A stretch of DNA of 64,000 nucleotides from assembly GCF_002197845.1 (NCBI RefSeq), contig NZ_NIDE01000002.1, forward strand, positions 310,001-374,000. The letters are read 5' to 3'. Of the stretch, positions 1 through 55,736 are shown one piece after another (position 1 is the first letter of the stretch; each line of letters begins with the position of its first letter). Origin of the DNA: Fimbriiglobus ruber. GTDB lineage: Bacteria; Planctomycetota; Planctomycetia; Gemmatales; Gemmataceae. A model generated the notes under the pieces. That model saw only the letters and a program-made list of their open reading frames with translations. It did no database searches and was not told the origin of the DNA. The translations under genes were made by a program, and so were the position numbers.

Positions 1-3000
1 CGCGTCCGGGCTCGCCGCGAACTGGCCGACCGCGTTCGCGTCGACCGGCACCGCCGCCGCCGTGGCGCTCGGGCCAGCCGCCGGGGCCAGGTTCCCGGCC
101 GTATCGACCGCCGTCCCGGCCGCCAGCGAAATCCCGACCGTGCCCGACCCGGTGATGTGAGTGAGCGTCACCGTCCGGGTCGTCCCGGTCCCGGTCACGG
201 CCACCGACGCGGTCGTCCCGTCGGTCGTGTTCAGCGTCACGTCGGCCGCCGTCAGCGTGCTGTCGGCGAAGTTCGCGTCCGCGTACGTCACTGTGTACGT
301 GACGACCGTGACCGCCCCGGCCCCGGTCACCACCGGGCTGCCGATCGCGACCGTCGGGGCCGTCGTGTCGACCGCGAACGTCCCGCTCGGGCCGGCCGCC
401 GGAGCCTCGTTGCCGCCCTGGTCAACCGCCGTCCCCGCGGCCAGGGAGATGCCGAGGGTACCGTCCCCCGTGATGTTGCTGAGGGTGACCGTCCGCGTCG
501 TCCCCGTCCCGCTGTCCACGCTCACCGTAGCACTCGCGGTCCCGGTCGCGTTCAGCGTCACGTCGGCCGCCGTCAGGGTGCTGTCGGCGAAGTTCGCGTC
601 CGAATACGTGATCGTGTACGTCACCGTACTCGACCCGTTGGCGATGGTGGCCGACGGGTTGCCGACGACCACCGTCGGGGCCGTCGTGTCGGACGTGAAG
701 GTGGCGCTCGGGCCGGCCGCCGGGGCCAGGTTGCCGGCCGTATCGACCGCCGTCCCGGCCGCCAGCGAGATGCCGAGCATGCCCGCCCCGGTGATGTTGC
801 TGAGGGTGACCGTCCGCGTCGACCCCGTCCCGCTGTCCACGCTCACCGTGGCGCTCGCCGTGCCCGTCGCGTTCAGGGTCACGTCGGCCGCCTTCAGGGT
901 GCTGTCGGCGAAATTCGCGTCCGTGTACGTGATCGTGTAGGTGGCCGTCGTACTCGATCCCGTGCCCGTGATCGTCGGGCTGCCGATCGCGACCGCGGGG
1001 GCCGTCGTGTCGACCGTGAACGTCCCGCTCGGGCCGGCGGCCGGCGCCTCGTTGGACGCCAGGTCGTGGGCCGTCCCGGCGGCCAGCGAGATGCCGAGCG
1101 TCCCGTCCCCGGTGATGTTCGTCAGGGTCACCGTCCGCGTCGACCCCGTCCCGCTGTCCACGCTCACGTCGGCCGACGCCGTCCCGGTCGTGTTCAGGGT
1201 GATGTCCGCCGCCGCCAGCGTGCTCTGGTCGAAGTTGGCGTCCGCGTAGGTGATCGTGTACGTGATCGTGTCGCTGGCGTTCGCGATCGTGGCGGACGGC
1301 GCACCAATGGCGACCGTCGGGGCGGTGGTGTCGGCCGTGAAAGTCGCGCTGGGTCCGGCGGCCGGGGCCTCGTTGGACGCCAGGTCGTGGGCCGTCCCGG
1401 CGGCCAGCGAGATGCCGAGCGTCCCGTCGCCCGTGATGTTCGTCAGGGTGACCGTCCGCGTCGACCCCGTCCCGCTGTCCACGCTCACCGTGGCGCTCGC
1501 CGTCCCCGTCGTGTTCAGCGTCACGTCCGCCGTTGACAGCGTACTCTGGTCGAAGTTCGCGTCCGCGTAGGTGATCGTGTACGTCACCGTACTCGCGGCC
1601 CCGGCGAAGGCGACCGACGGGCTGCCAATGGCGACCGTGGGGGCCGTCGTGTCGGCCGTGAAGGTCGCGCTGGGTCCGGCCGCCGGGGCTTCGTTCCCGG
1701 CCTCGTCGGACGCGGTGTTGGCGGCCAGGGAGATGCCGATCGTCCCGTCCCCGGTGACGTGCGTCAGGGTGACGGTACGGGTCGTCCCCGTCCCGCTGTC
1801 GACGCTTATCGTGGCGTTCGCGGTGCCCGTGGTGTTCAGGGTCACGTCGGCGACCGTCAACGAGCTGGAGGCGAAGTTCGCGTCGTTGTACGTGATCGTG
1901 TACGTCACCGTGCTGGTGCCGTTGGCGAAGGCCACCGACGGGTTGCCGATCGCGACCGTGGGGTCGGTGTTGTCGGCGACGAACGTCGCGCTGGGTCCGG
2001 CGGCCGGCGCCTCGTTCCCGACCGTGTCGTGGGCGGTGCCGGCGGCCAGGGAGATGCCGATCGTCCCGTCCCCCGTGACGTGCGTCAGGGTGACCGTCCG
2101 GGTCGTCCCGGTCCCGCTATCGACGGCCACGTCGGCCGTCGCCCCGCCCGTGGTGTTCAGCGTCACGTCGCCGGTCGACAGCGTACTCGCGGCGAAGTTC
2201 GCGTCGTTGTAGGTGATCGTGTACGTCACCGTACTCGCGTTGTTGGCGAAGCTGATCGACGGCGCGCTGATGTTGACGGTGGGAGCCATCGAGTCGACCG
2301 TGAACGTCCCGCTCGGCCCGGCCGCCGGAGCCTCGTTCCCGGCCTCGTCGGACGCCGTCCCGGCGGCCAGCGAGATACCGATCGTCCCGTCCCCCGTGAA
2401 GTTACTCAGGGTCACCGTCCGGGTGGCCCCGGTCCCGCTGTCCACGTTCACCGTCGCGCTCGCCCCGCCCGTGGTGTTCAGCGTCACATCGGCCGACGCC
2501 AGCGTACTCGCGGCGAAGTTCGCGTCGTTGTAGGTGATCGTGTACGTCACCGTGCCGGCGGCGTTGGTGATCGTGGCGGACGGCGCGCTGATGTTGACGG
2601 TGGGGTCGGTGTTGTCGGCGGTGAAGGTCCCGCTCGGCCCGGCCGCCGGGGCCTCGTTCCCGGCCTCGTCGGACGCGGTGTTGGCGGCCAGGGAGATGCC
2701 GATCGTCCCGTCGCCCGTGACGTTCGTCAGGGTGACCGTCCGGGTCGTCCCGGTCCCGCTGTCCACGTTCACCGTCGCGCTCGCCCCGCCCGTCGTGTTC
2801 AGCGTCACGTCGGCCGACGCCAGCGAGCTGGAGGCGAAGTTCGCGTCGTTGTACGTGATCGTGTACGTCACCGTACTCGCGTTGTTGGCGAAGCTGATCG
2901 ACGGCGCGCTGATCGAGACTGTGGGGTCGGTGTTGTCGGCCGTGAACGTCCCGCTCGGCCCGGCCGCCGGAGCCTCGTTCCCGGCCGCGTCGGACGCCGT

Positions 3001-3850
3001 CCCGGCGGCCAGGGAGATGCCGATCGTCCCGTCGCCCGTGACGTTCGTCAGGGTGACCGTCCGGGTCGTCCCGGTCCCGCTGTCCACATTCACCGTCGCG
3101 CTCGCCCCGCCCGTGGTGTTCAGCGTCACGTCGGCCGACGCCAGCGAGCTGGAGGCGAAGTTCGCGTCGTTGTAGGTGATCGTGTACGTCACCGTACTCG
3201 CGTTGTTGGCGAAGCTGATCGACGGCGCGCTGATGTTGACGGTGGGAGCCGTCGTGTCGACCGTGAACGTCCCGCTCGGACCGGCCGCCGGGGCCTCGTT
3301 CCCGGCCAGGTCGGACGCCGTCCCGGCGGCCAGCGAGATGCCGATCGTCCCGTCGCCCGTGAAGTTACTCAGGGTCACCGTCCGGGTGGCCCCGGTCCCG
3401 CTGTCCACGTTCACCGTCGCGCTCGCCCCGCCCGTGGTGTTCAGCGTCACATCGGCCGACGCCAGCGTACTCGCGGCGAAGTTCGCGTCGTTGTAGGTGA
3501 TCGTGTACGTCACCGTGCCGGCGGCGTTGGTGATCGTGGCGGACGGCGCGCTGATGTTGACGGTGGGGTCGGTGTTGTCGGCGGTGAAGGTCGCACTCGG
3601 GCCGGCGGCCGGGGCCTGATTGTTGGACGTGTCGTGGGCGGTGCCGGCGGCCAGGGAGATGCCGATCGTCCCGTCCCCCGTGATGTTCGTCAGGGTGACG
3701 GTCCGGGTCGTCCCGGTCCCGCTATCGACGGCCACGTCGGCCGTCGCCCCGCCCGTGGTGTTCAGCGTCACGTCGCCGGTCGACAGCGTACTCGCGGCGA
3801 AGTTCGCGTCCATGTACGTGATCGTGTACGTGACCGTACTCGCGTCGTTG
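1..3850 (-). repeat. Tandem 321-bp coding repeat array
   Basis: Landmark blocks encoding the YTVTY-DANF phrase recur at about 282, 606, 927, 1249, 1570, 1891, 2212, 2533, 2854, 3175, 3496 and 3817. The period is 321 bp (one unit is 324), so 107 codons per unit, and the reading frame is never broken. Units are most alike between about 2200 and 3640, where a block reappears 963 bp (three units) downstream with only scattered differences. That indicates recent in-frame amplification. The array continues past the left edge. Confidence 0.9.
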
Positions 3851-7529: not shown

Positions 7530-7627
7530 CCGGCGAGCGGGGGATGTGAGTCCCCTGATTCTGGGGGACGGCACACATCAATTCGCAGTTTCCCAGAATC
7601 AGGGGACTCACGTCCCCCGCTCGCCGG
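7530..7627. repeat. Long inverted repeat (36-bp arms) downstream of hcp
   Basis: Arm 7530-7565 and arm 7592-7627 are reverse complements with one mismatch, separated by 26 bp. Each arm contains the short near-palindrome GTCCCC-TGATTCT-GGGGGAC, so the structure is nested. It begins five bases after the hcp stop codon and sits just upstream of the tssE-like start at 7503. It could be a bidirectional terminator or a small non-autonomous element. Confidence 0.85.
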
Positions 7628-7632
7628 TTGTC

Positions 7633-8133
7633 TTACACCTTCGCGTTCTTCTTGAGGTCGTAGCCCCACTTGCCGGCGGACGACGTGACGCCCTTCTCGT
7701 CTTGCTTGAAGTATTCGCCCTCGACTTTGGCGAAGTTGAACGTGATCTGCTCGACGAGCAGGCCGGTCTTCGCGTCGACGCGGCCGGGGATCTGGAACGA
7801 CGAGATGAGCAGTTCGCTGAACTTGATGGTCAGGTACTTCTGCTGGCCACCCTTCTGCCCGGCCTTGCGGCAGGTCAGGAGGGCTTCGGAAATGTGCTGG
7901 CCGGTGGCGCAGTTGAGCTGCAGCTCGGGGGACGCCGTGCAGGTCACCATCTCGAAATGGAAGTCCTGCATGTCGACCTTACCGGCGCCGCCCCCGCCCC
8001 CGTGGGACATGGACCCGGTGTTGGTCATGCCCCAGTTCCAGTGCAACAGGTTGATCTGGTTCTCGAACCCCTTTTCCTGCGATTCGCCTTTGATGTTGCC
8101 TTTCGTCAGGTCCAGGTGGGCATCCACGCTCAT
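7633..8133 (-). CDS. hcp: Hcp, type VI secretion inner-tube protein
   Basis: The predicted product is 166 residues, a normal Hcp length, beginning MSVDAHLDLTKGNIKGES. Hcp rings stack into the tube that the TssB/TssC sheath propels. Family features visible are the N-terminal strand with KGxIxGES, the TASPELQLNC and GQHISEALLTCRKAG region, KYLTIKFSELLISSF, and a C-terminal strand KVEGEYFKQDEKG. An upstream in-frame ATG at 8193 would add about 20 Arg/Gly-rich residues unlike Hcp, so the start at 8133 is preferred. A Gly-rich loop (SHGGGGGAGK) near residue 45 is longer than usual. The gene follows tssC by about 140 bp. The coding frame is intact, but the locus around it is damaged. Confidence 0.93.
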   Translation of the reverse strand: MSVDAHLDLTKGNIKGESQEKGFENQINLLHWNWGMTNTGSMSHGGGGGAGKVDMQDFHFEMVTCTASPELQLNCATGQHISEALLTCRKAGQKGGQQKYLTIKFSELLISSFQIPGRVDAKTGLLVEQITFNFAKVEGEYFKQDEKGVTSSAGKWGYDLKKNAKV

Positions 8134-24303: not shown

Positions 24304-24954
24304 ATGAGCCGAGAAACCGATTTGCAGCGCGTCCTCGACTGCGGCATCGTCGCCGTGGTCCGCGCCCCCGACCCCGCGGGGTTGGTCGAGGTCGTCCGCG
24401 CGCTGGCCGACGGCGGTGTGACCGTGGCCGAGGTCACGCTGACCGTGCCCGGTGCGATAGACGTGATCCGCGAGGCGAAGAAGCAGCTCGGCGACCGCGT
24501 GCTGCTCGGGGCCGGGACCGTCCTCGACCCGGAAACGGCCCGCACGGTCTTCCTGGCCGGGGCCGAGTTTATCGTCTCCCCGGCGGTCAACCTGGATGTG
24601 ATCCGCCTCTGCCGGCGGTACGACAAGCTCGTCATGCCCGGGGCGTTCACGCCGACCGAAATCCTGGCCGCGTGGGAAGCCGGGGCGGACGTGGTGAAGG
24701 TCTTCCCGGCGGAGATCGTGGGGCCGGCGTTCTTCAAGGCGCTCCGCGGCCCGCTGCCGCAAATCAAGCTCATGCCGACCGGCGGCGTCGACCTGACCAC
24801 GGCCGCCGAGTTCCTGAAGGCCGGCGCCGTCTGCCTCGGAATCGGCGGCCAGCTCGTCGACCCGAAGCTCGTCGCCGCCCGCGCGTTCGACGCGATCACG
24901 GCGACCGCCCGGCAGTACGTGGAGATCGTGAAGCGGTTCAAGGCGAAGGGGTAG
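24304..24954 (+). CDS. eda: KDPG/KHG aldolase
   Basis: This 216-residue class I aldolase should cleave 2-keto-3-deoxy-6-phosphogluconate (and possibly 4-hydroxy-2-oxoglutarate) in the Entner-Doudoroff or uronate route. The conserved Glu is in VAEVTLTVPGA (Glu43). The Schiff-base Lys is in VVKVFPAE (Lys132). Phosphate-binding loops are in LLGAGTVLD and MPTGGVDL. ATG at 24304 is preferred over an in-frame start 60 bp upstream because the alignable family sequence begins there. The gene is divergent from the pxpC-like gene with a 171-bp gap and ends 58 bp before a strong inverted repeat. No other Entner-Doudoroff gene is nearby. Confidence 0.93.
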   Translation: MSRETDLQRVLDCGIVAVVRAPDPAGLVEVVRALADGGVTVAEVTLTVPGAIDVIREAKKQLGDRVLLGAGTVLDPETARTVFLAGAEFIVSPAVNLDVIRLCRRYDKLVMPGAFTPTEILAAWEAGADVVKVFPAEIVGPAFFKALRGPLPQIKLMPTGGVDLTTAAEFLKAGAVCLGIGGQLVDPKLVAARAFDAITATARQYVEIVKRFKAKG

Positions 24955-25360
24955 CAGACTCGCGGTCGTTCGGCAGTTGATAGTTGACGCACTCAACCAT
25001 CTCGTGGAACTACTCGTGACACAGCCTTCCAGGCCGTGGTGGGAATTCACGGCCTTGGAAGGCTGTGTCACGAGGCAGTCGAGCCGTGGCGCCTGGGAGC
25101 ATTTTTGCATTTATTGCGCTGAAACCCCCATATTTAATTTAGGACCGGCGGGTCGCCACGGTTATCGAGGCAGTCGGGATGGGTCGAGTATTTGCTGCCG
25201 AACGCCTTACTCGTGTGACGGGGAGAAAGTCGCTTTCTTTCCTGTCGGAGATGTCATTATGGCCCCGTCGGTCTCGCACTCGACTTGTTAGCCTTCGACC
25301 AAGGCGTTGGCTACGAAGCACATCCCGGCACCGCGACCCGCGCGTCGACTGCGGCTTGAG
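24955..25360. other. Gap downstream of the aldolase
   Basis: The gap contains the inverted repeat at 25013-25074 and an AT-rich patch near 25100-25140. No convincing gene was found on either strand. Confidence 0.55.
25013..25074. repeat. Inverted repeat (25-bp arms) after the aldolase gene
   Basis: The arm at 25013-25037 and its reverse complement at 25049-25074 differ by a single base insertion and are separated by 11 bp. The arm carries the ACAGCCTTCC-AGGCCGT phrase. There is no clear T tract. It may terminate transcription of the aldolase gene or be a small palindromic element. Confidence 0.85.
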
Positions 25361-27464: not shown

Positions 27465-27629
27465 ATGATCTGGGTGGAGTCGCAAACGATCCGGGGAGAA
27501 AATCATGTCGCGAAGTGGAAGCAAGCCGGGGCACCGCTCAACCTGTTCGTGATCCCGTACGTCGAAGTCGGCGGCCAGCCCCACCCGGCGGATAAGATCA
27601 TGACGCGGGTCGCGCTCGTGGACGAGTGA
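27465..27629 (+). CDS. Small ORF or C-terminal gene fragment
   Basis: This frame has 54 codons, ATG at 27465, stop TGA at 27627. The predicted peptide contains NHVAKWKQAGAPLNL, FVIPYVEVGGQPHPADK and IMTRVALVDE, which reads like genuine protein rather than noise. It shows no signal peptide and no recognised family. Its stop codon is the very first part of the inverted repeat 27627-27829, exactly as the stop of the convergent DUF6807 gene is at the other end. It may be a short gene or the surviving C-terminus of a longer one. Confidence 0.4.
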   Translation: MIWVESQTIRGENHVAKWKQAGAPLNLFVIPYVEVGGQPHPADKIMTRVALVDE

Positions 27630-27829
27630 GGCTTGCCCGAGCGAATTCCGGGTACGCTACGCGAACCCCGGGCTGAGCTGTGTAACGCTTTCAGCGTACC
27701 AAACCCGGCGGAGCCGCACGTGCGAAGAAACTAGGGACGTGGCAATTCTGGTTTTTACGCTGAAAGCGTTGTAGAACAGAGCCCGGGGTTCGCGTAGCGT
27801 ACCCCGGGATTCGCGGGGCAAGCCTCACT
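27627..27829. repeat. Long imperfect inverted repeat between convergent stop codons
   Basis: About 75-80 bp at the left end (27627-27700) is the imperfect reverse complement of the right end (27750-27829). Shared phrases are GTGAGGCTTGCC, GGTACGCTACGCGAACCCCGG and AACGCTTTCAGCGTA. The arm contains its own palindrome CCCGGGGT-n-ACCCCGGG. Each outer end begins with a TGA that is the stop codon of the adjoining gene (27627-27629 plus, 27827-27825 minus). Confidence 0.85.
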
Positions 27830-30536: not shown

Positions 30537-30962
30537 ATGCGCTCGCGCCTACTCTCGGTCGTCTGGTGGGCGGGTGCCGCGACTTTTCTTCTCACACAGA
30601 CGGGTTGCAGTCCCGGTCACGGCGACCTGCGCGGGCAGGTGACGTACAAGGGGAAGCCGCTCCGGATGGGCTCTCTTTCTGCCGTGGGTGCCGACGGCAT
30701 TCCGAAGTCGGCGGCGATCCAACCCGACGGTAGTTACGCGGTCCAAAATCTCCCCGCCGGCTTGGTCAAACTCACGGTGTGCTCGCCCGATCCAGCCAAG
30801 ATGCAGCCCCGCGCCAACAAAGCGAGGCCGGGCGAGCCGCCGCCCAAAATCGACGCCACGGGCTGGGTCGCCATCCCGGACAAATACTGCGATTTCAGCA
30901 CGTCCGAGTTGACGTTCACCCTCGGCAGCGGGGCGAACGAGTTCAACGTAGAATTGAAATAA
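30537..30962 (+). CDS. Lipoprotein with transthyretin/carboxypeptidase-regulatory-like fold
   Basis: The product is 141 residues. An N-terminal hydrophobic stretch ends in the lipobox LTQTGC. The mature part reads GQVTYKGKPLRMGSLSAVG, then PDGSYAVQNLPAGLVKLTV, the pattern of planctomycete lipoproteins found directly downstream of DUF1559 genes (beta-sandwich, carboxypeptidase-regulatory-like). The KYCDFSTSELTFTL tail matches that group. It is co-transcribed with the DUF1559 gene. It probably sits at a membrane and assists or accompanies the pilin-like protein. The stop is inside the end of the 30961-31274 inverted repeat. Confidence 0.85.
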   Translation: MRSRLLSVVWWAGAATFLLTQTGCSPGHGDLRGQVTYKGKPLRMGSLSAVGADGIPKSAAIQPDGSYAVQNLPAGLVKLTVCSPDPAKMQPRANKARPGEPPPKIDATGWVAIPDKYCDFSTSELTFTLGSGANEFNVELK

Positions 30963-31274
30963 GAATTTTAGCCACAGAGGTCACAGAGTACACAGAGGGA
31001 AGAGAGGAAGACACGAACTCAATTCGTGTCTTCCTCCGCTCGGCGTGGGTCTCCGACCCCGCCGTTCGGCCCGACCGTAGGTCTCCTGCCCCACGGTATG
31101 CGCCCATTCGGTCGGTGTCCCGAGCGACGAGCGTCGGGAAGGGAGACCTGCGGTCGCGCCGAACGGCGGGGTCGGAGACCCACGCCGAGCGGAGGGGAAG
31201 AGAGAAAGACGAACTCAATTCGTGTCTTCCTCTCTTCCCTCTGTGTGCTCTGTGACCTCTGTGGCTAAAATTCT
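30961..31274. repeat. Nested inverted repeat filling a convergent gene gap
   Basis: Outer arms at about 30961-31028 and 31207-31274 share AAGAATTTTAGCCACAGAGG and the CACAGAG-rich continuation, ending in the palindrome GAACTCAATTCG. Inner arms at about 31037-31086 and 31141-31191 share GCGTGGGTCTCCGACCCCGC and neighbouring bases. The 314-bp element occupies nearly the whole space between the stop codon of the lipoprotein gene (30962) and that of the DUF1501 gene (31280). The CCACAGAGGTCACAGAG phrase also forms the ends of the element at 32734-32851. Confidence 0.9.
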
Positions 31275-31279
31275 TGCTC

Positions 31280-32695: not shown

Positions 32696-32733
32696 GGAGA
32701 GGAGTCCTCAATTAGCTGCCGAGAAGAATTTAT

Positions 32734-32851
32734 TAGCCACAGAGGTCACAGAGCACACAGAGGGAAGAGAGAAAGACAAATTCAATTTATGTCTTTCTCT
32801 CTTCTTACTCTCTCTCTTCCCTCTGTGTGCTCTGTGACCTCTGTGGCTAAT
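32734..32851. repeat. Inverted repeat between DUF1549/1553 and DUF1501 genes
   Basis: Arms of about 45 bp at 32734-32780 and 32806-32851 are reverse complements, with the phrase ATTAGCCACAGAGGTCACAG at the outer end. The arm is the same family as the outer arm of the 30961-31274 element. It starts six bases after the DUF1549/1553 stop codon at 32858 (reading leftward). Confidence 0.88.
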
Positions 32852-32857
32852 CCTCTT

Positions 32858-35710
32858 CTAATCCACGTACCGGAAGTCGGCTGAAGCGAATAGGGCGTGG
32901 AACAATTGCGCCCACGACTCATTTGTGGCGGTACTCTGGGCTGCAAGGAACTTCAGGGCGACCACTTCTTCGCCGGCCGTCGGGGTGCGGCCCAGTGTGA
33001 GCTGATAGGCCCGCGTTATTCGCGCTTCGTCGTCAGGCAGTTTCTCGGCCAGCAGTTTTGTGGCGGCCTGCTTCGCCTGTTCCGCCACGAACGGGTGGTT
33101 CATCATGAAGAGCGATTGCGGGGCGACGGTACTCACGTTGCGACGGCCAGTCACAGTGCTTGGGTCAGCAGCGTCGAACAGTTCGAGCAGTTCCGGCATC
33201 GCGTTGCGAAACATCGGCAGGTAGACGCTCCGCCGGTACGAGGCGGACTTGTACCCGTAGTCGGCCGCCAGTGTCGCGGGGAACGTCTGGCCACCCTGCT
33301 CGGGGGAGAGTTGGCCGCTGACCGCCAGGATCGTGTCGCGGACGCACTCGGCCTCCAGCCGTCGGCGGTTGGCCCGGCCGAAGAGGAAGTTGTCCGGGTC
33401 GGCGGCCGTCGTCGCCTTGTCGCCGACCGACGACTGGCGGTACGCCCGGCTGAGGACGATCTGGCGAACCAGTTTCTTGACCGACCAGCCGTCGGCCGCG
33501 AACGTGGTCGCGAGGTGGTCGAGCAGTTCCGGGTTCGACGGCAGTTCGCCGGTGATGCCGAAGTTGTCCGTCGTCCGCACGATGCCGGAGCCGAACAGCC
33601 AGTGCCAGGTCCGGTTCGCCATCACCCGGGCGGTGAGCGGGTTCTCCCGCGCCGCGACCCAGTCCGCCAGTTCCCGGCGACCACTCTGACCCTTCGGGAT
33701 GGTGGGCGCCTTGCCCGCGGCCGTCGCCACCTGGAGGAAGCCGCGGGGCACGAGGTCGCCCTGGTTCTGCACGCTGCCGCGGACGTGGACCCGGGCGTCT
33801 TCAATCCGCCCTTCCTCGACCACGGACATCACGTGCTGCCGCTTCGGGCCGGTCTCTTTGAGTCGCTTCAACTCCGCTTCCAGTGCCTTCAACTCGTCTC
33901 CGGGCTTCTTCGTCGTGGCGGCCGGGGGCGTCGGAGTGGTCTTGTCGGCAGCCTTGTCGAGCGAGACGAACACCACGGCGTCCGCGGTGACGTGACCCGT
34001 TGTCCCCTCGTTCGACACAATCACGTAAGCGAGGCCGTTCTTTTCAAAGCGATATTCGCCGAGCGACACGTACCGGCCGTCGATCGGGGGCAGCGTCCGC
34101 ATGTCGACCGTGACTTCCTTCTCGCCGTCGGCGCCGCAAACGGTGACGGGCACGGCGCTCGCCCGGCTGGGCCCGGACGAATACGCGAGGCGGACGTCGT
34201 ACTTGCCGGCCGGGATCACTTCGGGCTGGAACGTCAGCGTCTTCTCGCCCTTGCCGGCGTTCTGGTCGTGGACGTAGCCGTCGCCGATGTAGCTGCCCGA
34301 GAACGTCGAGTGCTGCCACTCGCCGACCTTCTTGGCCGCCGCGTCGTCGACCACGACCCCGCCTACGTCCCGCACGGCCAGCAGTCCGCCGCGGGCCGCG
34401 ACCGGGCCGCCACGGGCTTTCTCGGTTTTGATCTTCGCCTGGAGCGTGGCGATCGCGCCCTCGTGCTTCCGGATCGCGGCCTCTTCCTCAGGGTTGCCGG
34501 GCAATGGCACCTCGACCCACTTCGACACGTTCGCGTGTTCCATCGCCTTCGCGTTCCGCAGGATGCCGGCGAGGGCGTAGTAGTCGCGGGTCGGGATCGG
34601 GTCGAACTTGTGGTCGTGGCAGCGGGCGCAGGTCACGGTCTGGGCCAGGAAGCCCTTGGTGATCACGTCGAGTTGTTCGTCCACTACGTCCATGCGGAGT
34701 TGCTTCTTGTCCTGCTCCTCCAGGTTCGTATTCCCGAGGGCGAGGAACGTGGTCGCGGTGAGCAGCCGGCGGCGATCGGCCTGGGTGTCGGCCGGAAGCA
34801 GGTCGCCGGCGAGTTGTTCGCGGACGAAGCGCTCGAACGGCACGTCGCGGTTGAAGGCGTCGATGACGTAGTCGCGGTAGCGCCAGGCGTCCGGGAAGAC
34901 GAGGCCGCGGAGCGTGACCGACTCGGCGTACCGGGCCACGTCGAGCCAGTGCCGACCCCACCGCTCGCCGTACTGCGGCGACGCGAGCAGCTTGTCCACC
35001 AGTTTCTCGTAGGCGGCCGGGTCCGGATCGCGGACGAAGGCGGCTGTTTCTTCCGGTGTGGGGGGCAGGCCGATCAGATCGAAGTAAAGACGGCGGACGA
35101 GGACCGCTTTGTCGGCGTCCGCCGCCGGCTTGAGCCCCTTCGCTTCCAACTGGGCGAGGACGAAGCGATCGATGTCGCCCGCGGGCCAGTTCGCCTGCTT
35201 GACTGCCGGGGCGGTCGGCGCTTTCGGCGGCTGGTACGCCCAGAACTTCCGCCCCTCGGCCACGCTCGGGCCGACCTGCTTCCGCGGCGCCGCCTGGGCG
35301 GTGCGCGGGTCGGCGGCCCCGTCGCGGACCCACTTCTCGAAGTCGGCGATCACGGCGGCCGGGAGCTTGCCAGCCGGCGGCATCTTCACGTCGCCGTCGT
35401 ACTGGAGCGATTTGAGGAGCAGGCTCTCGGCGACCTTGCCGGGCGCGAGAGCCGGCCCGCTGTCGCCGCCGGTGAGCAGGCCGTCGCGCGAGTCGAGCAG
35501 GAGGCCGCCTTTGAGCTTCTTGTTCTTCGCAGCCTCGGCCGAATGGCACTTGTAACACTGCTCGACGAGGACCGGCCGGATCTTCTGCTCGAAGAACGCA
35601 ACCTTTTGCGCGTCCATCGGATCGGCAGCACAGACCGACACGTGTGACGCGAGAAGCGCGATCACGGCGGCGGCGAAAACGGGGCCGGTCGGGGAGGCAG
35701 CAAGACGCAT
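32858..35710 (-). CDS. PSCyt1-DUF1549-DUF1553 planctomycete cytochrome-type protein
   Basis: The product is 950 residues with a signal peptide ending near residue 29. A haem-binding CYKCH motif (residues 52-56) lies in the PSCyt1 domain. DUF1549 follows at about residues 170-375 (FVLAQLEAKGLKP, LIGLPPTPEE, YGERWGRHWLDVARYAES, DVPFERFVREQLAGDLLP). A lectin-like insert occupies about 450-600. DUF1553 is at about 680-930 (GRRELADWVAARENPLTARVM, NRTWHWLFGSGIVRTTDNFG in parts, SRAYRQSS, LFMMNHPFV). These proteins are paired with DUF1501 proteins and are exported. A role in redox-coupled polysaccharide processing has been suggested for the group but is not proven. Confidence 0.95.
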   Translation of the reverse strand: MRLAASPTGPVFAAAVIALLASHVSVCAADPMDAQKVAFFEQKIRPVLVEQCYKCHSAEAAKNKKLKGGLLLDSRDGLLTGGDSGPALAPGKVAESLLLKSLQYDGDVKMPPAGKLPAAVIADFEKWVRDGAADPRTAQAAPRKQVGPSVAEGRKFWAYQPPKAPTAPAVKQANWPAGDIDRFVLAQLEAKGLKPAADADKAVLVRRLYFDLIGLPPTPEETAAFVRDPDPAAYEKLVDKLLASPQYGERWGRHWLDVARYAESVTLRGLVFPDAWRYRDYVIDAFNRDVPFERFVREQLAGDLLPADTQADRRRLLTATTFLALGNTNLEEQDKKQLRMDVVDEQLDVITKGFLAQTVTCARCHDHKFDPIPTRDYYALAGILRNAKAMEHANVSKWVEVPLPGNPEEEAAIRKHEGAIATLQAKIKTEKARGGPVAARGGLLAVRDVGGVVVDDAAAKKVGEWQHSTFSGSYIGDGYVHDQNAGKGEKTLTFQPEVIPAGKYDVRLAYSSGPSRASAVPVTVCGADGEKEVTVDMRTLPPIDGRYVSLGEYRFEKNGLAYVIVSNEGTTGHVTADAVVFVSLDKAADKTTPTPPAATTKKPGDELKALEAELKRLKETGPKRQHVMSVVEEGRIEDARVHVRGSVQNQGDLVPRGFLQVATAAGKAPTIPKGQSGRRELADWVAARENPLTARVMANRTWHWLFGSGIVRTTDNFGITGELPSNPELLDHLATTFAADGWSVKKLVRQIVLSRAYRQSSVGDKATTAADPDNFLFGRANRRRLEAECVRDTILAVSGQLSPEQGGQTFPATLAADYGYKSASYRRSVYLPMFRNAMPELLELFDAADPSTVTGRRNVSTVAPQSLFMMNHPFVAEQAKQAATKLLAEKLPDDEARITRAYQLTLGRTPTAGEEVVALKFLAAQSTATNESWAQLFHALFASADFRYVD

Positions 35711-44732: not shown

Positions 44733-46859
44733 ATGCCTCCACCCTCGGACACCGAAGTTTGGAACGACCGCGTGCGGGACGCCCTGTCCCGGTACGCCGA
44801 ACCTCTTTTGCGCGAGGTCGTGGGCCGGCTGGTGAAGCCGCGCACCGCGACGCCGCCGGACGAGCTGGTCGAGAAGTGCCTGTCCACCCTCGCCAACCCG
44901 CCCGTCATCGACCGGCGGGTCGCCGAACTCCCGCCCGCCGCGCGGAAGGCACTCGCCGTCATTGCCGTCAGTCGGCGACCGACCTGGAAAGTCGGGCACC
45001 TGATCACCATTCTGTCCGCTCTCGGGCACCCCGAAGGGTTCGCCCCAATCCACACGCTGCTGGAGACCGGCTTGCTCTGCCCGGACTTTTCGCTGCACGC
45101 CCCGGCTGTGGAACAGTTCGAGAGCTGGCTCGGCTCGGCCGGCACCGTCCACGCACAGGTCTTCGCCCACCCGGCCGTCGCCGCCCGCGCCCAGGGAGAA
45201 AATCTCGGCTTCCCGATCCCCCCCGGCGAGCGGCTCGGCTCGGCCTCGCCGCGGTTCACGGACGGCCTCGACTGGCTGTTGCGGCTCGCGCTCGTATGGC
45301 AGCAGGTGGACGAGGCCCCGGTCCGGTTGACCCAGGGGCGGACGCTGTTCAAGCGCGACCTGGGCCGACTCCAGACCGACGAGGTGCTGGCCGCCGCCCC
45401 GCCGGACCAACTCGTACCCGTTGCCGACCCCGGGGTGTTGTCGCTCCTGTGGGCCGAGGCGAGCGGGCTCATCAAGCTGAACGAGGGTGAACTGCGGTCC
45501 GCCCCGTTCCCGCCCACGTGGGGGGCGACGCTCACCCCCGCCGTGGCCGACCTGTGGGCCGCGCTCACGGCCGTCGAGGCATGGGATCCGCTTAGAGGTT
45601 ATTCCCCCGTCGAGTCCGGCCTGTCCGCACTGCCGACGGCCGGGCTGCTCGCGCTGCTGATCCTCGCCGGGGCCGCGCGGCCGGGTCAAGAAACGGGCTG
45701 GGTCGACCCCCAGGTTATTGCCGACTGGCTGTGGGAACACCATCCCTCGTGGCAGGGCGGCCTGCCCCGCGAAGAAGCGAAAACGCGGGGGCTGGCGTGG
45801 GTCGAGGCGTACCTGCTCGGGGTCGCGTACCCACTCAGGTTGGTTGAAGCGGCGCAGTACGACGGGTGGAAAGTGCGGCTGACCGACCTCGGCCGCCACT
45901 TGCTCGCGGGCGGACCGGAGCCGGCCGCCGCCCCGGCATTCCCGCAGACGCTGCTCGTACAGCCGAACGCCGAGGTGCTGGTTTACCGCCAGGGACTGAC
46001 GCCCAACCTGATCGGGCGGCTGTCGCGGTTCGCCCGGTGGAAGGGACTCGGCCCGGCCTGCACGCTGGAACTCAACGCGACGCGGACGTACCACGGGCTG
46101 GAGTCCGGGCTCACTCTCGCCAGCGTCCTGCAGACACTCAACCAGCACGGGATGAAGCCGGTCCCATCGGCCGTCGCCGACCTGCTGCGGCGGTGGGCCG
46201 ACAAGCGGGACCGGATCACCCTGTACTCGGCCGCCACGCTGGTCGAGTTCCAGACCGCGGCCGACCTCGACGCGGCCGTCTCGCGGGGGATCGTGAGCGT
46301 CCGCGTGACCGACCGGATCGGGCTGACCGACGACGGCCGCGACCCCGATTTCAAGAACCTGCGGCTGATCGGCAACCGGGACTACGAGGCCCGCCCGCAG
46401 CAGTGCGTGACGGTCGACGCGGACGGGGTGACGCTGACGATCGACGCGGCCCACTCGGACTTGATGCTGGAAGCGGAGATCGGCCGGCTGGCTGACCCCG
46501 TGACCGGCGACCCGCCGGGCCTGCGGCGGGTCCGCATCTCCCCGCAGTCGCTGGCCCGCGCGCAGGCCGCCGGACTGACGCTCGCCGACCTGGACGCGTG
46601 GTTCCAGGCCCGGGCCGGGCACCCGCTTCCCGCGCCCGGCCGGCTGTTCGTCCTCGCCCCGCACCTCGCGGCTCCGACCGCCGCCCGGCACCTCGTGGTC
46701 CACCTCCCGTCCGCCGAGGCAACCGACGGACTGGTGCAGTGGCCGACCACCGCCGCCCTGGTCGGCCCGCGGCTCGGGCCGACGGCCGTGGTTGTCGACG
46801 AGGCGAACCTGGAGCGGCTACGCGAAGTGCTGGCGGGCCTGGGAATGCAACTGGCGTGA
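44733..46859 (+). CDS. XPB/Ssl2-like helicase-associated domain protein (no ATPase core)
   Basis: The product is 708 residues. The C-terminal third has the XPB/Ssl2-type N-terminal helicase-associated fold: TLLVQPNAEVLVYRQGL, LNQHGMKPVPSAVADLLRRW and RITLYSAATLVEF. The N-terminal part is helical (RYAEPLLREVVGRLVKP, PAARKALAVIAVSRR). I see no Walker A or DEAD-box helicase core, so it is a helicase-accessory protein of the group common in planctomycetes and actinobacteria, perhaps working with a separate helicase. ATG at 44733 starts the alignable region. It is convergent with the PepSY-like gene across an inverted repeat. Confidence 0.8.
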   Translation: MPPPSDTEVWNDRVRDALSRYAEPLLREVVGRLVKPRTATPPDELVEKCLSTLANPPVIDRRVAELPPAARKALAVIAVSRRPTWKVGHLITILSALGHPEGFAPIHTLLETGLLCPDFSLHAPAVEQFESWLGSAGTVHAQVFAHPAVAARAQGENLGFPIPPGERLGSASPRFTDGLDWLLRLALVWQQVDEAPVRLTQGRTLFKRDLGRLQTDEVLAAAPPDQLVPVADPGVLSLLWAEASGLIKLNEGELRSAPFPPTWGATLTPAVADLWAALTAVEAWDPLRGYSPVESGLSALPTAGLLALLILAGAARPGQETGWVDPQVIADWLWEHHPSWQGGLPREEAKTRGLAWVEAYLLGVAYPLRLVEAAQYDGWKVRLTDLGRHLLAGGPEPAAAPAFPQTLLVQPNAEVLVYRQGLTPNLIGRLSRFARWKGLGPACTLELNATRTYHGLESGLTLASVLQTLNQHGMKPVPSAVADLLRRWADKRDRITLYSAATLVEFQTAADLDAAVSRGIVSVRVTDRIGLTDDGRDPDFKNLRLIGNRDYEARPQQCVTVDADGVTLTIDAAHSDLMLEAEIGRLADPVTGDPPGLRRVRISPQSLARAQAAGLTLADLDAWFQARAGHPLPAPGRLFVLAPHLAAPTAARHLVVHLPSAEATDGLVQWPTTAALVGPRLGPTAVVVDEANLERLREVLAGLGMQLA

Positions 46860-46873
46860 ACGGGGGAGCGATT

Positions 46874-46956
46874 CTGGTCGGTGTAGGGCACGCTATTGCG
46901 TGCCGTCTTTGCCGCAGGGAGCCACGGCACGCAATAGCGTGCCCTACACCGACCAG
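46874..46956. repeat. Perfect 33-bp inverted repeat between convergent genes
   Basis: Arms 46874-46906 and 46924-46956 are exact reverse complements separated by 17 bp. Each arm contains the self-complementary phrase GGCACGC-TATT-GCGTGCC, so four stem arms can form. It sits 14 bp after the XPB-like stop and 8 bp before the PepSY-like stop. Confidence 0.95.
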
Positions 46957-46964
46957 ACGATTTC

Positions 46965-47456
46965 TTACTTCCCTTCCTTCTCTTTGCTCTTGTCTTCCGT
47001 CTCGATCACCTTGCCGTCTTTGTCGAAGACGACTTCGAGCTTCTTCTTGTCGGCGGACACAAGTAGGACTTCGTAGGTGACTTTGTCGTCCTTGGTGATC
47101 TCCTCGACCTTTTTGATCTCAGCCTTGGGGTACGCTTTGTCCAGCGCCGCGGCGACCGGCTTCGGCAGGTCGGCGAGCTTGATTTCTTTCTCGGCCGCGA
47201 CGATCTTCCCCTCCGGCGTGACGGTCACTTCGATCTTCGCGTCGCCGTCCGCGATCGCCACCTCGTACACCGTCTTGCCCTTCTCCGTTTCCTTCTCGGC
47301 GGACTTCATCTCGGCCTTCGGGAACTTGGCCTTCACCGCGTCCACGACCGCCTTCGGGAGCTTATCGAGCGGGATCTTCTCCTCGTCCGCGCGGGCGGCC
47401 ACCGCCACTGCGAGACCGGCCACGACGGCCACGGCCAGGGCAAACATGCGAGACAT
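46965..47456 (-). CDS. Secreted PepSY-like protein with two repeats
   Basis: The product is about 163 residues: signal peptide (FALAVAVVAGLAVAVAARA) then two similar modules of about 60 residues. Each begins with a short LP-hydrophobic helix (LPKAVVDAVKAKFPKAEMK and LPKPVAAALDKAYPKAEIK) followed by charged strands ending VTPEGKIVAAEKEI and VFDKDGKVIETED. This is the PepSY-like / beta-lactamase-inhibitor-like fold. It is very rich in Lys and Glu. A role in binding or inhibiting a periplasmic enzyme is suggested by the family but not shown. Two or three adjacent ATG codons (47459, 47456, 47447) compete as the start. Confidence 0.82.
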   Translation of the reverse strand: MSRMFALAVAVVAGLAVAVAARADEEKIPLDKLPKAVVDAVKAKFPKAEMKSAEKETEKGKTVYEVAIADGDAKIEVTVTPEGKIVAAEKEIKLADLPKPVAAALDKAYPKAEIKKVEEITKDDKVTYEVLLVSADKKKLEVVFDKDGKVIETEDKSKEKEGK

Positions 47457-54944: not shown

Positions 54945-55736
54945 TCCGTTTCACCTCACTGGGAGAATGTGGCTTATACTTCCCGCGGCCCGGATTGAGG
55001 TCTTTTGCCGCCCGGATGTGGGCGGGGTCGACATCCCCGGCAGGTGCGACCTCACCCCCGGCCCCTCTCCTCCGAGAGGAGAGGGGAGCAAAGAGGCGAA
55101 CGTCACCGACATCGGGGCCGCCGTTTCCCGAACCGACACTCTCAATCCGCACGCCGTCCGCTCGTACTCCCCTCTCCATCTCGGAGGAGAGGGGTTTGGG
55201 GTGAGGTCGCCGCTCCACCCGTCTCCACTCGCCGGGACGGAGAAACATCTCATTCCGGACCGCGCGAAGTATATCCGGTCCGTAAGGATCGCCCACGCGG
55301 CGGGCGAAATCAAGACAGAAAGTCTTGACCGTTTTGGCAGAAGTTTCGAGGCCGCCGTGTGACCGGTTGCATCCGCGGACAATCAGCCGCTCCCTTCCAC
55401 GCCTCCGAAGGTTCCCCGGCCGTGACCGAGACCGAAAACCCGCGGCCGTCGCATTTTGCGCAAACTGCCCGTCTTGCTGTTCGGACGGGAAAATTCAACG
55501 AAGTTGGCAAGATTACCAATTCCGTCGTTCCGTCCGGTTGTACCGGCTTTACCCAACCGGGCTCATGTACCGACTCCGGGATGCCGATTTTAGGGGCAGC
55601 AGGATGCGTATCCCGTCCTGGCGGCGGGGGGAGTTTTGCATCGCCGTCGGAATGAACCGGACGCACCGCCGGGTCATGGGCGGCGGGGTCTCAACGACAC
55701 TCGCCCCGCGAGGGCTGGGCAGATCAGGAGCGTGCC
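54945..55736. other. Gene-free divergent region
   Basis: No gene is supported. It contains the inverted repeat at 55050-55206. AT-richer stretches at about 55450-55530 may hold promoters for the plus-strand BBP7 gene. The upstream region of the minus-strand gene at 54944 is also here. Confidence 0.55.
55050..55206. repeat. Imperfect inverted repeat in a divergent gap
   Basis: Arm 55050-55088 (begins CCTCACCCCCGGCCCCTCTC) and arm 55167-55206 are reverse complements with a few mismatches. The left arm itself contains CTCTCCTC-CGA-GAGGAGAG, so the structure is nested. The right arm closes with GGTTTGGGGTGAGG. Confidence 0.85.

What the first reader, a model, noticed from the sequence alone, without database searches (positions are those of the whole stretch)
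46874..46956. Family-diverse nested palindromes placed at gene ends
At least five intergenic elements (7530-7627, 25013-25074, 27627-27829, 30961-31274, 46874-46956), plus 32734-32851, share one architecture: two long reverse-complement arms, often each containing its own short palindrome, starting within a few to about 60 bp of a stop codon. Three lie between convergent genes. Most have unrelated sequences. This repeated layout suggests selection or an insertion preference for 3' ends, as bidirectional terminators, RNA-stability elements or non-autonomous transposons.
Basis: partly seen in the sequence, partly recalled or inferred. Interest (0 to 1): 0.75.

Follow-up and report, generated by a model that had tools for sequence, protein, structure and literature searches.

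The report
Mobile palindromes parked after stop codons
The palindromes are real, belong to many families of small repeated DNA elements, and sit strikingly often just behind gene stop codons; most of this is a known kind of bacterial repeat, but one type recurs across very distant microbes and I found no description of it.

Summary
In 1.264 Mb of this 12.36-Mb genome 76 inverted repeats have arms of 25 nt or more (1, 0 and 0 in three shuffles). Of 95 intergenic elements 65 lie within 60 bp of a stop codon (12.3 expected; 0 of 1000 random placements as many), 30 between convergent genes (15.9 expected) and 6 between divergent ones (25.2 expected). A further 300 kb repeats the stop-codon result. 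The named element is an inverted pair of GTAG-footed REPs with 34/34 matching arms, at 22 places here and in none of 58 relatives. The other listed elements also belong to dispersed families. Two other families flank HUH Y1 transposase genes on both sides. No sided U-tract and no G-U excess among mismatches: terminators or RNA pairing are not supported as the general cause. REP placement at gene ends was published in 2013 (PMC3733652). Newer: palindromes with arms of 8-10-nt tandem units. In one family the arms co-vary (37 of 43 identical, 17 variants); CACAGAG palindromes occur in about 13 phyla. My text searches found no description of them.

The parts
46873..46957 (.). Named element: inverted pair of GTAG-footed REPs, arms 46873-46906 and 46924-46957 (34/34 complementary), REP cores 46887-46904 and 46926-46943
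   Evidence: 42 blast matches merged by hand to 22 places in the genome
7528..7629 (.). Nested palindrome of another family, 3 bp from the stop of the gene at 7633-8133 (-)
   Evidence: 111 blast matches in the genome, both strands
25013..25074 (.). Palindrome with an indel between its arms, between convergent genes, 58 bp after the stop at 24954
   Evidence: 6 blast matches in the genome
27627..27829 (.). Nested palindrome; main arms 27650-27698 and 27756-27804
   Evidence: 37 blast matches in the genome
30961..31275 (.). CACAGAG tandem-unit palindrome that fills the gap between two convergent stop codons
   Evidence: CACAGAG unit pairs 72 pattern matches in the genome, reversed control 0
31033..31195 (.). 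Second palindrome (GGGTCTCCGACCCCGCC family) nested inside 30961-31275, with 35-nt imperfect direct repeats (32 identical) on either side
   Evidence: 223 pattern matches in the genome, reversed control 0
32732..32851 (.). CACAGAG tandem-unit palindrome, 6 bp from the stop of the gene at 32858-35617 (-)
44733..46859 (+). Gene ending 13 bp before the named element; Helicase_C_3 domain
46965..47447 (-). Convergent gene ending 7 bp from the named element; PepSY-like

Best explanation
The element at 46873-46957 is a REPIN-like inverted pair of GTAG-footed REPs, one of 22 places of its family in this genome. The six listed elements are members of several dispersed families of small, non-autonomous palindromic DNA. 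Copies spread as a unit (inferred), for some families probably through HUH Y1 transposases that cut and join single-stranded hairpins (shown: two other families flank such genes on both sides; inferred: the activity, and any extension to the listed families). Copies accumulate directly after stop codons because insertion there is tolerated or targeted (placement shown, cause inferred). In at least one family the two arms stay identical while copies diverge; I infer that this happens at DNA level, by propagation of intact hairpins or by template-switch correction, and not through RNA pairing.
For: GTAG foot plus a 7-bp stem in each arm, arms inverted and identical; 22 places in the genome, 9 of 18 viewed still palindromic and the rest half or decayed copies; no match in 58 relatives. 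13 multi-member clusters among 104 elements. Placement. Families flanking Y1 genes on both sides: L024 (its family also at 10 other loci) and L025. One family nested in another. Arms identical in 37 of 43 CRCRGAT elements with 17 variants, all six variable positions above 2000 of 2000 shuffles. No G-U excess, 26 against 29.
Against: No empty site or movement was seen; the same-genus relatives found are distant (62% protein identity in the one with the helicase-like gene). None of the three Y1 genes is flanked by a family of the window's listed elements. The Y1 proteins score as IS200-type, not as RAYT. Arm identity does not exceed copy identity in every family: lower in clusters 5 and 8, equal in 4, nearly equal in 3. 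In the cross-phylum CACAGAG set 2-nt spacers match between arms no better than shuffled, 19 of 46 against 17.8.
Confidence: 0.7

Rival explanations
1. The elements are bidirectional transcription terminators or 3'-end RNA stabilisers, selected at gene ends; sequence diversity only reflects that any strong hairpin will do.
For: Strong excess next to stops and between convergent genes. 21 short-loop singletons with a median 24-nt stem, 13 of them convergent. T-rich tails are commoner than background: 20 of 70 family and 4 of 22 short-loop single tails with at least 4 T in 8 nt, background 7.1%. In genome G035 the orthologous helicase-like gene is followed by a different GTAG-type palindrome.
Against: T enrichment is not sided (13 of 47 on the other side for families, 3 of 7 for short-loop singles). 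No G-U over A-C bias (26 against 29). Only 3 of 28 readable orthologs (L087, L090, L101) have an inverted repeat with arms of 20 nt or more within 400 nt of the stop.
Confidence: 0.2
2. Insertion is targeted: the elements insert at stop codons or at a sequence common there, beyond mere tolerance.
For: In convergent gaps family elements lie a median of 3.5 bp from the nearest stop and 12 of 16 are within 10 bp; gap minus element is a median of 25 bp, against 128 bp for convergent gaps without an element. TAA is the adjacent stop in 33 of 57 readable cases against 284 of 775 genes, p = 0.0014.
Against: Purifying selection against insertion in genes (9 of 104) and divergent gaps (6 against 25.2 expected) predicts much of the pattern. 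AT-rich element ends may explain some of the TAA excess. Families differ: clusters 2 and 4 lie further from stops.
Confidence: 0.35
3. Palindromes arise in place by template switching and are not mobile; families are chance resemblances.
For: 38 of 104 elements have no relative in the sample, and arms match closely even there. Template-switch upkeep of hairpins is described elsewhere (PMC8794818, PMC7202029; search listing with start of abstract only).
Against: Families of tens to hundreds of pattern or blast matches at scattered places, with reversed-pattern controls of 0 in the three pattern searches, are not chance. A singleton in a 10% sample may have relatives outside it: 25013 and 27627 did.
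Confidence: 0.08

Closest known systems
GTAG-tagged REPs and REP dimers (Di Nocera et al. 2013, PMC3733652; abstract, sections 15 and 16 and passages read)
   Same: GTAG foot, palindromic unit, inverted dimers, many copies, mostly extragenic, placed after genes and between convergent genes, convergent ones mostly under 20 bp from both stops; Planctomycetes named in the abstract.
   Different: The unit sequence was not compared with the families of that paper. Several families here lack a GTAG foot, and the tandem-unit palindromes have no REP hairpin in each arm.
REPINs (Bertels and Rainey 2011, PMC3116915; listing and passages read)
   Same: Two inverted REPs forming one hairpin; compensatory changes across the hairpin are reported there too.
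   Different: Those REPINs go with RAYT genes; here no transposase gene is linked to the 46873 family.
TnpA-Y1/REP systems and their classes (PMC6006769; passages and section 17 read)
   Same: HUH Y1 genes flanked by multi-copy palindromes (L024, L025); Y motif YIANQ..HH resembles the Y---Q--HH signature given for subclass 1.2.
   Different: Subclass 1.2 is described there as mostly in Cyanobacteria and Bacteroidetes and without REPs; no phylogeny was made here.
REPs as targets of insertion sequences (Tobes and Pareja 2006, PMC1525189; search listing only)
   Same: A 1.8-kb insert sits in the loop of a CACAGAG palindrome at C14:921343-923175.
   Different: The target is a tandem-unit palindrome, and the insert's 570-codon frame has no Pfam match, so its nature as an IS is not shown.

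Membership tests
GTAG-REP dimer / REPIN (46873-46957) | GTAG (or GGAG) foot next to an imperfect palindromic stem | tested here: met
   GTAG at 46883 followed by GGCACGC-4 nt-GCGTGCC; mirror image on the right
GTAG-REP dimer / REPIN (46873-46957) | Two units in inverted orientation a short distance apart | tested here: met
   34-nt arms, 100% complementary, 17 nt between
GTAG-REP dimer / REPIN (46873-46957) | Many dispersed, mostly extragenic copies in the genome | tested here: met
   42 blast matches merged by hand to 22 places; flanks viewed for 18 of 22. The number is low for a REP family
GTAG-REP dimer / REPIN (46873-46957) | Linked RAYT gene flanked by the same family | tested here: inconclusive
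   Three Y1 genes found, none flanked by this family; the assembly is 97.08% complete in 20 contigs, and such genes can be lost (PMC3733652, section 16)
GTAG-REP dimer / REPIN (46873-46957) | Movement as a unit (empty sites or new copies) | not testable with these tools
   No near strain among the relatives searched
RAYT (the three Y1 genes) | Score above the curated cut-off of the REP-associated tyrosine transposase model | tested here: not met
   20.9, no match and 19.5 bits against a cut-off of 80; IS200/IS605 model 70.9, 62 and 51.7 bits against 55
RAYT (the three Y1 genes) | HUH Y1 domain | tested here: met
   PF01797, 87.2, 77.9 and 74 bits against a cut-off of 23
Intrinsic terminator | T-rich tail on the downstream side of the stem | tested here: not met
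   20 of 70 downstream against 13 of 47 on the other side for family elements; 4 of 22 against 3 of 7 for short-loop singletons
Rfam families | Match at the gathering score | tested here: not met
   The only match in the window is a guanidine-II riboswitch at 175-224

The most novel reading that the evidence does not exclude
The CACAGAG and CRCRGAT elements (30961-31275 and 32732-32851 are CACAGAG members in the window) belong to an unnamed, cross-domain class of mobile palindromes. Their arms are tandem 8-10-nt units, not REP hairpins; the two arms are renewed together in at least one family; and they insert at, or are kept beside, stop codons in bacteria of about a dozen phyla, at least one archaeon and viral contigs, by an enzyme not yet identified.
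Probability: 0.4. Interest if true: 0.75.

Novelty: new variant of a known kind. Interest (0 to 1): 0.5.

Why it matters
REPs at gene ends are known, so the headline is not new. The genome is a clean case in which many palindrome families share one position rule, which allows insertion targeting, tolerance and RNA function to be separated. The tandem-unit palindromes are the interesting part: they cross phyla, one family keeps its two arms matched through many variants in this genome, the sense-strand mismatches show no RNA-pairing signature, and no transposase is linked to them here. If they are one class, they are a widespread and overlooked kind of mobile DNA, and a natural test of how palindromes stay perfect.

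Tried and rejected
Intrinsic terminators as a general explanation: tail composition shows no sided U-tract. RNA pairing as the force keeping arms: G-U against A-C on the sense strand, 26 against 29. One common sequence for all elements: 13 multi-member clusters and 38 singletons. Conserved position in orthologs: mostly absent (an earlier pass, read minus-strand loci in the wrong direction and was replaced). An autonomous element bounded by CACAGAG arms at C14:921343-923175: it looks like an insert in the loop, with 16-nt inverted ends and a 9-nt flanking duplication read by eye; I first took its frame for a transposase, but Pfam has no match. Plasmids: blastn of 32725-32860 at E 1e-3 found none. 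Viral contigs: the long CRCRGAT pattern found none. One search used a loosely composed pattern and is no proper control; the exact reversed CACAGAG pattern was run (18 stretches, 0 of 18 palindromic). Rfam at gathering scores gave nothing for the elements. A first gene caller was replaced by that. Limits: the caller is conservative (75.5% coding), so some 'intergenic' stretches hold uncalled genes; the gapless repeat finder misses arms with indels or runs of mismatches, such as 25013 and 55046.

Full report
What was checked. The window lies at G000:C2:310001-374000 of a 12.36-Mb genome in 20 contigs. The named element has two 34-nt arms, 46873-46906 and 46924-46957, that are exact reverse complements, 13 and 7 bp from the stop codons of two convergent genes.

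Chance and placement. I took 1.2 Mb of further sequence from seven contigs, some adjoining the window and some around places that earlier searches had hit, so the 1.264-Mb sample is not strictly random. Genes were called with a hexamer model (775 genes, 75.5% coding; on 200 kb of reversed sequence 20 calls covering 2.6%). Arms of 25 nt or more at 88% identity: 76, against 1, 0 and 0 in shuffles; 40 nt or more: 30 against 0 in each. 104 elements with arms from 20 nt resulted: 9 in genes, 95 intergenic. Of the 95, 30 were convergent (15.9 expected), 59 codirectional (53.9) and 6 divergent (25.2); 65 were within 60 bp of a stop (12.3 expected, 0 of 1000 random placements as many); in codirectional gaps 50 were nearer the stop and 9 nearer the start. 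A second set of 300 kb, part of it around known family places, gave 17 elements, 15 intergenic, 8 within 60 bp of a stop (1.1 expected, 0 of 1000); convergent 7 (3.7 expected) and divergent 1 (3.1 expected; 153 of 1000 simulations as low), so the divergent depletion is not significant there.

Families. Clustering of the 104 gave 13 multi-member clusters (66 elements) and 38 singletons. The named family has 42 blast matches, merged by hand to 22 places, and none in the 58 other genomes of a relatives search. Of 18 places viewed with flanks, 9 still show an inverted repeat; the rest are half or decayed copies. Matches for the others: 7528 family 111, 27627 family 37, 25013 family 6, CACAGAG unit pairs 72, GGGTCTCCGACCCCGCC 223, CRCRGAT unit pairs 164 (both strands, so elements are fewer; the three pattern searches had reversed-pattern controls of 0).

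What it looks like. Each arm of the named element is GTAG plus a 7-bp stem with a 4-nt loop, and the two arms are inverted: the build of a GTAG-tagged REP dimer or REPIN (recalled first, then compared with PMC3733652 and PMC3116915). PMC3733652 already reports REPs between convergent and unidirectional genes, convergent ones mostly under 20 bp from both stops in the species it diagrams, and names Planctomycetes in its abstract. The core of the finding is therefore known in kind.

Enzymes. The genome has three Y1_Tnp genes. L024 lies between inverted copies of a family that also occurs at 10 other loci, counted by hand. L025 lies inside 230-nt inverted repeats (222 matching) with the cluster-4 unit on both sides. 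L023 has a cluster-2-type palindrome on one side. They score as IS200-type (2 of 3 above cut-off) and not as RAYT. Motifs of the listed window elements were not found beside any of them (20 kb viewed for L023 and L025, 3.3 kb for L024). Mobilisation of the listed families by Y1 proteins is inference.

Function tests. Tails with at least 4 T in the first 8 nt: 20 of 70 downstream and 13 of 47 on the opposite side for family elements; 4 of 22 and 3 of 7 for short-loop singletons; background 7.1%. T enrichment exists but is not sided. Sense-strand pairs in codirectional elements (59 inverted repeats, both sets): 2091 Watson-Crick, 26 G-U, 29 A-C, 10 other. RNA-level selection should favour G-U; none is seen, though the number is modest.

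Arm matching. In 43 CRCRGAT elements with the 18-mer on both arms (found in loci chosen from the first 100 of 164 listed matches, and in the sample, so elements with one ruined arm are under-represented), 37 have identical arms, with 17 distinct left 18-mers; mismatches average 0.26 within and 2.92 between elements, and all six variable positions exceed 2000 of 2000 shuffles. This is not general: arm identity is below mean copy identity in clusters 5 and 8, equal in 4 and nearly equal in 3.

Across phyla. Of 81 matches, 50 lie in palindromes with arms of 15 nt or more at 80%. By record titles these come from Planctomycetota, Pseudomonadota, the old Deltaproteobacteria including Sorangium, Acidobacteriota, Chloroflexota, Bacteroidota, Verrucomicrobiota, Chlamydiota, Gemmatimonadota, Spirochaetota, Calditrichota, Bacillota and an archaeon (Candidatus Ethanoperedens). 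Several phyla rest on a single record, and Gemmatimonadota, Spirochaetota and the archaeon on arms of only 16-17 nt. Many records are metagenome bins, where contamination is possible; isolates include Bacteroides finegoldii (32/32), Verrucomicrobium sp. (29/30), Magnetospirillum sulfuroxidans (29/29) and Sorangium cellulosum (21/21). With long ORFs as a proxy, of 50 palindromes 7 lie in an ORF, 9 at a locus edge, 14 convergent, 17 codirectional and 3 divergent; 25 of these 34 are nearest to a stop. Spacer lengths agree between arms in 37 of 37; whole first spacers are identical in 14 of 37 (4.8 shuffled) and second ones in 9 of 26 (2.0), yet the bases of 2-nt spacers agree no better than shuffled, 19 of 46 against 17.8: many of these copies look old. 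The CACGAAG unit was recalled, not taken from the window. Sequence-string searches of papers gave seven incidental papers; in the one I opened the string was a primer. Term searches listed no description of such elements. Most subscription journals are not in that library.

Relatives. Inverted repeats of 25 nt or more: 9 in 160 kb of G034, 0 in 80 kb of G010, 0 in 80 kb of G003, 2 in 80 kb of G046. G034 and G046 also hold CACAGAG-type palindromes of their own. At the stop of the helicase-like gene, 3 of 28 readable orthologs have an inverted repeat with arms of 20 nt or more within 400 nt; in G035 it is an unrelated GTAG...CTAC palindrome.

Nested insertion. At 31033-31195 a second palindrome sits inside the CACAGAG palindrome, between imperfect direct repeats of 35 aligned nt (32 identical); at L292 and C4:248820-249360 the same inner family sits beside a tandem-unit palindrome between direct repeats of 82 (69 identical) and 66 (62 identical) aligned nt. 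In the sample 2 of 7 places of the inner family lie within 300 bp of a tandem-unit palindrome. Such long duplications would be unusual for a transposon (from general knowledge) and are unexplained.

Verdict. The named element is a REP dimer of a known kind, and the mobile reading is favoured over terminators. The tandem-unit palindromes are the part worth pursuing.

Noticed in passing
window 30961-31275; L292 630-1100; C4:248820-249360 of G000: An inner palindrome family (GGGTCTCCGACCCC) inserted in or beside tandem-unit palindromes, each time between imperfect direct repeats of 35, 82 and 66 aligned nt.
   Followed up: partly
L291 1840-3680 (C14:921343-923175 of G000): A 1.8-kb insert with 16-nt inverted ends and an apparent 9-nt duplication in the loop of a CACAGAG palindrome; its 570-codon frame has no Pfam match.
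   Followed up: partly
L275 1490-2010 (C5:228.9-229.4 kb of G000): Three palindrome families nested in one another: CRCRGAT outside, CACAGAG within, GGGTCTCCGACCCC innermost.
   Followed up: partly
stop codons next to elements in the 1.264-Mb sample: TAA is the adjacent stop in 33 of 57 readable cases (2 of 59 unreadable) against 284 of 775 genes, p = 0.0014.
   Followed up: partly
window 55046-55210: Inverted repeat of the CTCACCCC family in a divergent gap, a counter-example to the gene-end rule.
   Followed up: no
window 175-224 (-): Guanidine-II riboswitch, 33.3 bits against a gathering score of 32.
   Followed up: no
window 941-3496 (+): Successive ORFs whose ends are spaced by multiples of 321 bp, which suggests a long tandem repeat in a protein.
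   Followed up: no
L090, 25-83 nt after the stop (genome G035): The orthologous helicase-like gene is followed by an unrelated GTAG...CTAC palindrome.
   Followed up: partly
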